A stretch of 48,446 nucleotides of DNA from an uncultured bacterium (GTDB lineage: Bacteria > Bacillota_I > Bacilli_A > RF39 > UBA660), in NCBI GenBank assembly GCA_946643435.1, contig CAMPCD010000006.1, positions 1 to 48,446 of the forward strand. The letters are read 5' to 3'. The stretch's first letter is position 1; each line of letters opens with the position of its first letter. The notes below the pieces were generated by a model. That model did not search any database. It saw only the letters and a list, made by a program, of their open reading frames with translations, and was not told the DNA's origin. Both the position numbers and the translations under genes were made by a program. Positions 20,598-23,572 of the stretch are shown in pieces.

Positions 20598-21140
20598 ATG
20601 AAACTGTATCATATAGATAGAACAATGACATTAAAAGAAGGAGATATAGTTAATATTAATAAAAATATTGATATAACTGATTCAACATCTGTTGTTGTAT
20701 ATAATAATGTATTAAAGAATTATAAAGATGGTTTATCTTATCATGGTATTGGATATTATTGTAGATCAATTAATGATTGTTCTAGTTTAATTGATGTAAT
20801 ATTTGAATATGAAAGATTATTAAAATATCCTGATAAACTATCTAGATATCAATCATTATTTGCTACTGATAAAGATAATTTATTAAGAATGATAAATAAA
20901 ATAACAGATGGTAGTAATTATAAGATATATGAAATAGATACTGATAATTATGAAAAACATGATATGAATTTATTAAAGGGATGTATACCTGCAGTAATAT
21001 CTGAATTATCTTATTATTATTGGAATAATATTCCTAAAGAATTTTATCCATTAGGATTAATAGATGAAGAACCTCTTTATGAATATTTAATAGCATTGCC
21101 ATGTGTAATTGGTAAGGAAGTTAAGATTGAGGATATATAA
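20598..21140 (+). CDS. Hypothetical protein, possibly DUF2441-like
   Basis: This 180-residue soluble protein begins MKLYHIDRTMTLKEGDIV. It has a central IFEYERLLKYPDKLSRYQSLFA stretch (about residues 75-97), cut here to YPDKLSRYQSLFA. That pattern recalls the DUF2441 family and, more loosely, small ADP-ribosyltransferase-like folds with an N-terminal Y-H strand; this is a weak resemblance from memory. Acidic and aromatic residues dominate the C-terminus. TAGGAG lies ten bases before the ATG, and it follows rmlA by 28 bases, so it may share its transcript. It is immediately upstream of the reverse transcriptase locus but has no visible promoter link to it. The function is unknown. Confidence 0.6.
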   Translation: MKLYHIDRTMTLKEGDIVNINKNIDITDSTSVVVYNNVLKNYKDGLSYHGIGYYCRSINDCSSLIDVIFEYERLLKYPDKLSRYQSLFATDKDNLLRMINKITDGSNYKIYEIDTDNYEKHDMNLLKGCIPAVISELSYYYWNNIPKEFYPLGLIDEEPLYEYLIALPCVIGKEVKIEDI

Positions 21141-21180: not shown

Positions 21181-21208
21181 TTGACATTAATAATTTGAAG
21201 AGTATAAT
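21181..21208 (+). promoter_or_regulatory. Consensus promoter of the RT-associated ncRNA
   Basis: TTGACA, a 16-base spacer and TATAAT form one of the best sigma-A-type promoters in the window. Transcription would start near 21215, about 300 bases before the reverse transcriptase ATG. The promoter therefore makes a long structured leader or separate RNA, unlike the near-leaderless promoters used elsewhere here. Confidence 0.8.
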
Positions 21209-21214
21209 AATAAT

Positions 21215-21496
21215 TGCCATGGTAAATTGTACTATGTGTTTACAATGTTAATTGTCAATATTATATTGATAATTATTGTTATGTTAAAGTTAACGTTCAT
21301 ATATGAACCACCTCGCTTTGACAGTATAGTTATTAATGTGAAGAATAATAAATCCTTTACTATATTAATTATATCAAACTTAATAATGAGGTAGCAGCAT
21401 TGCAAAGAACTGAGTATATTTTAATATGAAGAATTGAAAATTGAAAGGTTATTAATGAACACATCTATAAGGGAGGCTGCATCCTAGATGTGTTTC
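21215..21496 (+). ncRNA. Structured ncRNA upstream of the reverse transcriptase (DRT2-like template candidate)
   Basis: This fills most of the 373-base gap between the small protein and the reverse transcriptase. Hairpins visible by eye, in order: ATTGTA/TACAAT (21226-21246); a ten-base stem 21250-21259 with 21265-21274 (one G-U, loop ATTAT); the perfect palindrome GTTCATATATGAAC at 21295-21308; AGTATAGT pairing with ACTATATT at about 21323-21366; a possible long-range pair ACCTC (about 21309-21313) with GAGGT (about 21388-21392); and a terminal nine-base stem AACACATCT/AGATGTGTT (21458-21466 with 21486-21494). The last ends about 20 bases before the RT start. The size, about 280 nt, and the position fit ncRNAs of DRT2-type defence systems. 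The 40 bases before the promoter show nothing clear. Confidence 0.6.
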
Positions 21497-21513
21497 TTTA
21501 AATTGGTGGGATT

Positions 21514-22833
21514 ATGGATAAAATATTTAAAGAAAAGAATTATCAACATATAGACAAAAAAATAAAAATCGATGATGTAATAAATATAGTTAAAAATCCT
21601 AATTTTGTTTTGAAACATGCTTTTTATCCATTTATTAGTTACACAATTACTATGCATAAATATGTTAAACGTAGCAAAAAAACTTATGAAAGGAAAGAAA
21701 AAAGTAGGCCAATAAAGTATGCATCTCATATTGATAGGTATATATACCAATGGTATTCTCATTTACTAAATGATAAGTATAATGATTATGTATTAAAAAA
21801 TGATATTAATAATAGCGTGATTGCATATAGAACATGCCTTAAAGGAAAGACAAATATAGAGTTTTCAAGAAAAGCTTTTGACTATATTAAGAAAACAAAT
21901 GGTTGTTATATTTTAGTTAGTGATTTGTCTAATTTCTTTGATAAAATTGATCATAAAAAATTAAAGAATAATTTATCTATTGTTCTAAATCAAAATCCAC
22001 TACCAGATGACTATTATAAAATCTATAAATCAATGACTAAATATTCTTACATAGAAAAAGCTGATATTATAGCTTATCTATTAGATAATAATATAGAGAG
22101 TGAAAAATCGCTGAAAAAATGTAATAGTTTATTAGATAAAACAGAATGGAAAATAGTAAAGAAAAAGTTAAAAAATAAAATAATAAAAAATGATAAAAGT
22201 TATGGGATTCCACAAGGTTCACCATTGAGTGGAATATTTGCTAATATTTATATGATAGATTTTGATAAGTACATAAGAAATTATGTTGATAATAAACATG
22301 GATTATACATGCGATATTCGGATGATATAATTATCATAATTCCAAGTGATGAAATTGAATCGATTTCTGAAATTTGGAATATAATTCAACATATAAGTAA
22401 GGAGTATAATACAATGGAATTAAACATTGAAAAAACTTCAGGATTTTTATATAATGGAGAATCAATTAAATCACTCCATGAAAATATTTATAATATGCGT
22501 AATGGTAATACCTTTGTAAGTTACTTAGGATTTTCATTTGATGGCAAAAATATAAAATTTAGAGATAAAACTTTGACCAAATTTTATTATAAACTGTATA
22601 GAAAAATAGATGAAATGATAGCTCGTGAAAATTTACGAATAGAAAAAGGAAAAAAGAAACATACGAAAATAGATAAACATCAAATTATTAAGAATGCCAT
22701 TAATAAAAATAATAAAACAAGAAAATTTATTGATTATGTAGATAAAGCTATAAAAGTTTATCCTAATGAAAAGTATATTGTTGAATTTAGAAATAGTGTT
22801 AAATCTAAGATTTTTGACAGATTTAATAAATAA
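21514..22833 (+). CDS. Stand-alone reverse transcriptase, putative DRT2/UG2-like antiphage enzyme
   Basis: This 439-residue protein is a reverse transcriptase with no extra domain. RPIKYASHIDRYIYQW (65-80) is an RT0/1-like element. Motif A SDLSNFFDKID holds Asp137, motif B is GIPQGSPLSG (231-240), motif C is MRYSDD with Asp270 and Asp271, motif D LNIEKTSGF and motif E SYLGFSFDG. A basic helical tail of about 90 residues follows. It lacks the maturase and endonuclease parts of group II intron enzymes and the retron VTG element, and no template/variable repeat pair is visible. It most resembles the 'unknown group' RTs linked to phage defence, with UG2/DRT2 the nearest by size, single-gene layout and upstream ncRNA. 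GGTGGG precedes the ATG. The subclass call is from memory of motifs. Confidence 0.8.
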   Translation: MDKIFKEKNYQHIDKKIKIDDVINIVKNPNFVLKHAFYPFISYTITMHKYVKRSKKTYERKEKSRPIKYASHIDRYIYQWYSHLLNDKYNDYVLKNDINNSVIAYRTCLKGKTNIEFSRKAFDYIKKTNGCYILVSDLSNFFDKIDHKKLKNNLSIVLNQNPLPDDYYKIYKSMTKYSYIEKADIIAYLLDNNIESEKSLKKCNSLLDKTEWKIVKKKLKNKIIKNDKSYGIPQGSPLSGIFANIYMIDFDKYIRNYVDNKHGLYMRYSDDIIIIIPSDEIESISEIWNIIQHISKEYNTMELNIEKTSGFLYNGESIKSLHENIYNMRNGNTFVSYLGFSFDGKNIKFRDKTLTKFYYKLYRKIDEMIARENLRIEKGKKKHTKIDKHQIIKNAINKNNKTRKFIDYVDKAIKVYPNEKYIVEFRNSVKSKIFDRFNK

Positions 22834-23370: not shown

Positions 23371-23572
23371 TGTAATGCGATGATATAGGACTAGTAATAT
23401 ATATAAGTATTAAAGAGAATCTATGGTTGGTGAGAATAGATATATAAGTATATATGAATCTACCTATTAGTTGGTATAATAATACCCGGATATACTCCGT
23501 TATAGTAAATAAGTTAAATAAAGAGATGGCACCGTGCTTTAAGCACTTTCTTAAAAGCTATCTCTTTTTTAT
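23371..23572 (+). promoter_or_regulatory. T-box riboswitch, probably serine-specific
   Basis: The leader carries the T-box core TGGCACC (23527-23533). It lies in a terminator/antiterminator pair: AGAGATGGC (23522-23530) pairs with GCTATCTCT (23557-23565), followed by a T-run, and a small GTGCT/AGCAC hairpin sits inside. Upstream are Stem I landmarks: AGTA (23393-23396), AGAGA with GGTTGGTGAGAAT (about 23413-23436), and GAA followed by TCT (23459-23461), the presumed specifier, a Ser codon. The variable base of TGGC would pair with a G discriminator, as tRNA-Ser has. Uncharged tRNA-Ser would favour antitermination and turn on the genes through serS. Confidence 0.82.

What the first reader, a model, noticed from the sequence alone, without database searches (positions are those of the whole stretch)
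21194..21391. Stop-free frame through the presumed ncRNA, as expected of a neo-type template
In the RNA-sense frame beginning at 21194 there is no stop codon until TAG at 21392, about 195 nt, although the DNA is strongly AT-rich and the other two forward frames are full of stops. No ribosome site precedes the internal ATG at 21245, so an ordinary small gene is unlikely. The antisense frame is also free of stops from about 21234 to 21420. TTGACA -35 hexamers occur inside the RNA in both orientations (21318-21323 forward; 21253-21258 reverse) without a well-placed consensus -10 in the single copy. In DRT2 the promoter and endless frame appear only when template copies are joined. One illustrative solution is a 111-nt unit from 21223 to 21333 (37 codons, TAA microhomology at both ends), which would put the forward TTGACA 17 nt before TACTAT and encode a hydrophobic repeat. 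This unit is a guess.
Basis: partly seen in the sequence, partly recalled or inferred. Interest (0 to 1): 0.72.

Follow-up and report, generated by a model that had tools for sequence, protein, structure and literature searches.

The report
Hidden repeat gene on antisense strand

Summary
The stop-free sense frame (21194-21391) is real, but by itself it means little: P 0.022 on that strand, 0.16 on either strand. It begins inside the RNA's own promoter, and the nearest relative (G634, RT 61% identical) has stops in it. The neighbour at 21514-22833 is a DRT2-type reverse transcriptase. In published DRT2 systems neo is read antisense to the RNA. On that strand the window has a perfect TTGACA (21258-21253) and a perfect TATAAT (21373-21368). 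Joining copies at 17-bp spacing fixes the unit at 138 nt (46 codons). The unit is stop-free, begins and ends at a repeated AAT, and carries GAGGTG-N8-ATG in frame. G634 gives a 153-nt unit by the same rule, with a 5-nt junction match, the same ribosome site and ATG, and only in-frame indels. All eight members of the window's RT clade have such a unit, as do three of four members of the neighbouring Photobacterium-type subclade; a sense-strand control gave none. Differences from the described DRT2: the junction repeat is not ACA, the unit is longer, translation starts mid-repeat, and the RT scores below NCBIfam's Drt2 cut-off. No cDNA, transcript or protein was observed; the mechanism is inferred. 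Best reading: a divergent DRT2-type system with an antisense neo.

The parts
21181..21208 (+). Likely promoter of the ncRNA: TTGACA 21181-21186, N16, TATAAT 21203-21208; expected start near 21215
   Evidence: Sequence; same layout in G634 (TTGACA-N17-TATAAT)
21216..21238 (+). 5' handle hairpin of the ncRNA (GCCAUGGUA-AAUUG-UACUAUGUG)
   Evidence: Folds at -6.0 kcal/mol; G634 keeps it with compensatory changes (U-A to C-G, G-U to G-C); a hairpin occurs at the same place in other DRT2 loci. Not better than shuffles on its own in the window (z -1.5)
21244..21381 (-). Predicted template/repeat unit, 138 nt = 46 codons, read antisense: KFDIINIVKDLLFFTLITILSKRGGSYMNVNFNITIIINIILTINI, endless when concatenated
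   Evidence: homologous 153-nt unit in G634 and in-frame indels
21244..21246 (+). Junction repeat copy 1 (AAT), counterpart of ACA-1
   Evidence: Matches 21382-21384 at exactly 138 nt; G634 has AATGT at the aligned place, offset 153
21382..21384 (+). Junction repeat copy 2 (AAT), counterpart of ACA-2
   Evidence: As above; the 3-nt match alone is not significant in the window (27% of shifted offsets do as well)
21253..21258 (-). neo -35 element TTGACA (antisense)
   Evidence: Perfect; no consensus -10 within promoter distance in the single copy; conserved in G634 and in the other hit loci
21368..21373 (-). neo -10 element TATAAT (antisense), 17 bp after the -35 once copies are joined
   Evidence: Perfect; no -35 upstream in the single copy (at most 3/6); conserved in G634
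21309..21314 (-). Shine-Dalgarno site GAGGTG of neo
   Evidence: 8 nt before ATG; identical in G634
21298..21300 (-). Predicted neo start codon ATG, in the endless frame
   Evidence: conserved in G634
21385..21500 (+). 3' scaffold of the ncRNA, with GTAGCAG motif (21391-21397) and a terminal hairpin at 21457-21496
   Evidence: Hairpin -15.1 kcal/mol, z -3.1; equivalent hairpins in G634 (z -3.0) and G648 (z -3.6); GTAGCAG also in L028 and L041
21514..22833 (+). DRT2-type reverse transcriptase, 439 aa, catalytic YSDD intact
   Evidence: PADLOC Drt2 5e-121, NCBIfam Drt2 353 bits, cut-off 390, KpDRT2 structure 9c0i 1e-59 over 5-415

Best explanation
A DRT2-type antiviral system of a divergent, Bacillota/gut-phage-rich clade. 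The ncRNA (about 21215 to 21500) binds the reverse transcriptase. The enzyme copies the template (about 21244-21381) and, at its 5' end, shifts the nascent cDNA end back to the matching repeat at 21382-21384 and copies again. The concatemeric cDNA, once double-stranded, carries TTGACA-N17-TATAAT at every junction. It is transcribed antisense to the ncRNA into a repetitive mRNA with GAGGTG-N8-ATG and an endless 46-codon hydrophobic repeat (Neo), which arrests the infected cell. Shown by sequence: RT family, motifs, 138-nt spacing, endless frame, conservation in relatives. Inferred from experiments on Klebsiella DRT2: cDNA synthesis, template jumping, second strand, expression, toxicity, phage trigger.
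For: RT is Drt2 by PADLOC (5e-121) and aligns over its length to KpDRT2 9c0i (1e-59). Perfect antisense TTGACA and TATAAT imply a 138-nt unit at 17-bp spacing, a multiple of three and endless. G634 gives 153 nt, 5-nt junction match, conserved SD/ATG; indels of 15, 6, 3 and 3 nt and all 132 aligned columns in register in the antisense frame, while all sense frames have stops. G648 gives 153 nt with a 7-nt junction match. Rule scan: hits in all 8 members of the window's RT clade (tree support 97/96) and 3 of 4 of the neighbouring subclade with Photobacterium, L026, L027 and Psychrobacter; no hit on the sense strand. The rule was shaped on the window and G634; the other loci are the test. With no filter on frame or junction, all 8 perfect -35/-10 wrap pairs in 7 DRT2 loci have lengths divisible by three (5 of 5 loci without the window and G634), against 6 of 16 pairs in the host genome (Fisher 0.006). 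The window's perfect unit arises in 0.1% of shuffles and in 1 of 1672 host strand-tiles. Junction matches summed over the hit loci exceed all 20,000 shifted-offset draws, although junctions were chosen for a match of 3 or more.
Against: The window's own junction match is only AAT (3 nt), not significant alone, so the exact junction is uncertain. No ACA motif pair. The RT falls below NCBIfam's Drt2 cut-off. The open antisense frame alone is expected in 19% of shuffles. Substitutions between the window and G634 show no protein-level constraint (2 synonymous, 12 nonsynonymous codons). No template stem equivalent to SL2 was established. The looser rule (11 of 12 promoter bases) hits 4.2% of host tiles, so L021, L025, L026 and L042 are individually weaker.
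Confidence: 0.82

Rival explanations
1. Sense-strand neo: a 111-nt unit 21223-21333 (or similar) read in the RNA sense.
For: The sense frame is open for 66 codons (P 0.022 on that strand); the 111-nt unit is endless and puts TTGACA 17 nt before TACTAT.
Against: All sense frames of the G634 template contain stops; the forward TTGACA is TTGACT there; TACTAT is 3/6; the unit would take in the 5' handle hairpin and leave out half of the conserved template; 0 sense hits in 18 loci; KpDRT2 transcripts are antisense to the ncRNA (PMC11100668).
Confidence: 0.03
2. The RT makes concatemeric cDNA, but the product acts otherwise (as DNA, or through another product), and the endless antisense frame is a by-product of composition.
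For: Tang et al. report that Neo was hard to annotate in more divergent DRT2 clades and suggest alternative mechanisms (PMC11100668); other DRTs act through non-coding DNA; codon substitutions show no protein constraint.
Against: Lengths divisible by three in all perfect wrap pairs against 6 of 16 in the host genome; in-frame indels only between the window and G634; SD plus in-frame start conserved.
Confidence: 0.09
3. Ordinary small antisense gene: a 22-aa hydrophobic peptide from ATG 21300 to the stop near 21232, with the ncRNA as its antisense regulator (type I toxin-antitoxin-like).
For: GAGGTG-N8-ATG precedes a short hydrophobic frame.
Against: No antisense promoter in the single copy: the TATAAT has at most 3/6 bases of a -35 upstream. 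The RT neighbour, the unit length divisible by three and the in-frame indels outside that short frame are unexplained by it.
Confidence: 0.03
4. A decayed DRT2 locus with no function.
For: DRT2 is rare in the host family (3 of 386 genomes).
Against: RT open over 439 aa with YSDD intact; perfect promoter motifs, structured RNA (z -3.4) and conserved start site.
Confidence: 0.03

Closest known systems
DRT2 (UG2) of Klebsiella pneumoniae with neo (PMC12039810, PMC11100668; structures 9c0i, 9lv5)
   Same: Single RT gene with upstream structured ncRNA; antisense -35/-10 that pair only across a repeat junction at 17 bp; unit divisible by three; endless hydrophobic frame; SD and start inside the unit; 5' handle hairpin and 3' hairpin next to the RT.
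   Different: Junction repeat AAT (AATGT in G634) instead of ACA; unit 138 nt against 111-129 nt in the 42 closest Klebsiella relatives; SD/ATG begins about 50 nt after the -10 rather than about 13 nt; RT only 30-35% identical to the Photobacterium- and Psychrobacter-type relatives and below NCBIfam's cut-off.
DRT2-like locus of Clostridioides phage HGP05 (L041) and gut viral contigs L028, L040
   Same: Same RT clade; units of 132, 150 and 135 nt, perfect -35/-10 at 17 bp, strong SD, GTAGCAG scaffold motif (L028, L041).
   Different: Junction repeat GTAT or AGTATTA; no evident similarity of the Neo sequences to the window's by eye (not tested).
Telomerase and DRT10
   Same: Template with a short alignment repeat that allows repeat addition (analogy drawn for DRT2 and telomerase in PMC12039810; DRT10 makes tandem repeats from an ncRNA, PMC12632851 abstract).
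   Different: Much shorter repeats in telomerase; no coding role.

Membership tests
DRT2 (UG2) defence system | RT of the Drt2 family | tested here: met
   PADLOC Drt2 best, 5e-121, next families at 1e-21; best PDB match KpDRT2
DRT2 (UG2) defence system | NCBIfam Drt2 equivalog cut-off (390 bits) | tested here: not met
   353 bits; G634 333, G648 358; Photobacterium 567 passes
DRT2 (UG2) defence system | Structured ncRNA directly upstream of the RT | tested here: met
   21213-21500 folds with z -3.4; hairpins conserved with compensatory changes; promoter at 21181-21208. Expression not tested
DRT2 (UG2) defence system | Antisense -35/-10 reconstituted across the repeat junction at 17 bp | tested here: met
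   TTGACA 21258-21253, TATAAT 21373-21368, unit 138 nt
DRT2 (UG2) defence system | Repeat unit divisible by three with one endless antisense frame | tested here: met
   138 = 46 codons; 153 in G634 and G648
DRT2 (UG2) defence system | ACA-1/ACA-2 flanking the template | tested here: not met
   AAT repeat instead; no ACA pair at the needed offset
DRT2 (UG2) defence system | Template-bordering stem SL2 and 3' pseudoknot | tested here: inconclusive
   Terminal hairpin and 5' handle seen; SL2 and pseudoknot not resolved
DRT2 (UG2) defence system | Concatemeric cDNA, neo mRNA, Neo toxicity, phage defence | not testable with these tools
   Needs experiments

The most novel reading that the evidence does not exclude
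The template-jump signal of DRT2 is not the ACA sequence but any short repeat flanking the template. Each lineage keeps its own matching pair (ACA, GTAT, AGTATTA, TAATATT, AATGT/AAT) at exactly the offset that keeps promoter spacing and reading frame, so neo exists well beyond the clade where it was annotated, with Neo proteins of very different sequence.
Probability: 0.5. Interest if true: 0.62.

Novelty: new variant of a known kind. Interest (0 to 1): 0.5.

Why it matters
It gives a testable, numerical prediction (138 nt, antisense, start at 21300) for a DRT2 clade with a non-ACA junction. Tang et al. say that Neo could not easily be annotated in more divergent DRT2 clades; whether theirs include this one could not be checked. 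The rule used here (two promoter halves that fix the unit length, then a check of divisibility by three and of a matching junction repeat) needs no sequence similarity and could find such hidden genes elsewhere. The variety of junction repeats bears on how the enzyme jumps back, the step it shares in concept with telomerase.

Tried and rejected
Rfam at gathering threshold (no match) and at E up to 1 for the ncRNA region (only a chance CRISPR-repeat match). Protein-pattern search of viral contigs with the window RT alone (none), and repeat scans with clade alignments, which gave only one further, distant relative (L068, not analysed). Wider genome sampling: 3 DRT2 in 386 family genomes, none elsewhere in the class and phylum samples. 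The rule fails in L019, L032 (Psychrobacter), L038 (Calothrix) and all four Lactobacillales RTs (L035, L036, L037, L039); relaxing it gave only two weak matches in L038 and none in the rest. L033 is truncated upstream. Codon-position substitution test between window and G634: not informative (9, 4, 6 of 44 each). Hydrophobicity of the unit: GRAVY 1.05 against 0.22 +/- 0.40 for shuffles, suggestive only. Folding of the whole RNA did not give a consistent SL2. Empty-site comparison: HIT-gene neighbours differ in congeners, so no clean empty site. Neo structure prediction not run: the concatemer is not a sequence of the window.

Full report
What was checked. The sense frame from 21194 to the TAG at 21392 is open for 66 codons, as stated, and the antisense frame is open from 21420 down to 21235. 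Neither is remarkable alone: shuffles that keep dinucleotide content reach them in 2.2% and 19% of cases on the given strand. The frame also begins upstream of the RNA: TTGACA 21181-21186 and TATAAT 21203-21208 form a promoter that is conserved in a relative, so the RNA should begin near 21215.

What the neighbour is. The gene at 21514-22833 encodes a reverse transcriptase whose best match in PADLOC is Drt2 (5e-121; the next family 1e-21). Its best solved relative is Klebsiella DRT2, aligned over residues 5-415. NCBIfam's Drt2 model also ranks first but at 353 bits, under the curated 390; Photobacterium, Psychrobacter and Calothrix DRT2 pass that cut-off and the window's relatives G634 and G648 do not. 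In a tree of 19 RTs the window sits in a clade of eight (support 97/96) made of three genomes of its own family and gut or Clostridioides phage contigs, apart from the Photobacterium-type clade and from a Lactobacillales clade.

What the literature requires. In Klebsiella DRT2 the RT copies a 120-nt template into tandem repeats. The junction joins a -35 and a -10 at 17 bp, and the gene neo lies on the strand opposite to the ncRNA, with units divisible by three, flanked by two ACA motifs (PMC12039810; PMC11100668). Insertions of 3, 6 or 9 nt in template loops are tolerated and 1-nt insertions are not.

The antisense unit. On the antisense strand the window has TTGACA at 21258-21253 and TATAAT at 21373-21368. 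In the single copy neither has a partner: the best -35 upstream of the TATAAT is 3/6, and the best -10 after the TTGACA is 4/6 at 16-bp spacing and 0/6 at 17. Joined copies with 17-bp spacing need a unit of exactly 138 nt. That is 46 codons and endless for every register tested between 21234 and 21255, and the register starting at 21244 has an AAT match at both ends. GAGGTG lies 8 nt before an in-frame ATG at 21300.

The nearest relative. G634 (RT 61% identical) has a perfect -35/-10 pair that fixes a 153-nt unit, endless when joined at an AATGT match at offset 153, the first base again 9 nt before TGTCAA. The alignment of the two units has gaps of 15, 6, 3 and 3 nt; all 132 aligned columns stay in antisense register, and GAGGTG-N8-ATG is kept. 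All three sense frames of G634 contain stops. G648, more distant, gives 153 nt with a 7-nt match, TTGACA-N17-TATATT and GGAGGT-N7-ATG.

Wider test and chance. The rule was shaped on the window and G634, so other loci are the test. Scanning up to 410 nt upstream of 19 RTs (the window and 18 relatives), hits at exactly 17 bp came from L025 (117 nt), L026 (132), L027 (117), L028 (150), L034 Photobacterium (111), L040 (135), L041 Clostridioides phage HGP05 (132) and L042 (165), besides the three family members. The same scan on the sense strand gave none. With no filter on frame or junction, every perfect -35/-10 wrap pair at 17 bp in DRT2 loci (8 pairs in 7 loci) has a length divisible by three, including 5 of 5 loci after leaving out the window and G634. 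In 15 stretches of the host genome plus the rest of the window, 6 of 16 such pairs do (Fisher 0.006). Of the 8 DRT2 pairs, 7 are endless even without choosing the junction, against 3 of 16; the eighth (G634) is endless with the junction at its match. The Fisher value of 2e-4 printed for endlessness counts G634 as endless. The full rule with a perfect promoter occurs in 0.1% of window shuffles and in 1 of 1672 host strand-tiles; the looser rule in 2.6% and 4.2%, so loci that pass only the looser rule are individually weak.

Junction repeats. The matching repeats differ between lineages: ACA in L027, AGTATTA in L028, GTAT in L040 and L041, TAATATT in G648, AATGT in G634, AAT in the window. Against shifted offsets in the same loci the summed match lengths are never equalled in 20,000 draws. 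That test is inflated because junctions with a match of 3 or more were selected, but the 7-nt matches in G648 and L028 and the 4- and 5-nt matches in L034, L041 and L042 are not reached by any of their shifted offsets (26 per locus). In the window itself the match is only 3 nt and not significant alone, so the junction there rests on alignment with G634.

RNA anatomy. A small hairpin follows the promoter (21216-21238), with compensatory changes in G634, and a strong hairpin precedes the RT (21457-21496, z -3.1; G634 -3.0; G648 -3.6). These resemble the 5' handle and 3' elements of the Klebsiella RNA. The template-bordering stem and the pseudoknot were not resolved.

Verdict. Works like DRT2 with neo: likely (0.82). 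Member of the named Drt2 equivalog: two features tested and not met (ACA motifs, NCBIfam cut-off), hence filed as a variant. cDNA synthesis, jumping, transcription, translation and toxicity are inferred from the Klebsiella system and untested here. The published journal version of Tang et al. and the supplements of both papers could not be read, so an earlier listing of some of these units cannot be excluded.

Noticed in passing
window 23371-23553 (+): T-box leader (Rfam RF00230, 91.4 bits, E 8.6e-21), just below the gathering score of 93 and therefore missed by a default scan; it precedes a NUDIX gene, a glutamine amidotransferase and serS, so probably serine-responsive.
   Followed up: partly
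window 20598-21140 (+): A 180-aa gene directly before the DRT2 locus with no Pfam, NCBIfam or PADLOC match and no homologue in ten congeneric genomes; perhaps part of the same acquired stretch.
   Followed up: partly
L023 2127-3146 (-): In G634 an Abi_2 (PF07751) gene and a metallophosphoesterase lie next to the DRT2 locus, suggesting a small defence island.
   Followed up: yes
L035, L036, L037, L039 upstream regions: The Lactobacillales DRT2-like RTs (about 500 aa in three of the four) show no neo unit by the promoter-wrap rule even when relaxed; they may use another product.
   Followed up: partly
L041 (Clostridioides phage HGP05): A predicted neo unit of 132 nt whose only start with a Shine-Dalgarno site is TTG (GGAGGT-N8-TTG), carried by a Clostridioides phage.
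   Followed up: no
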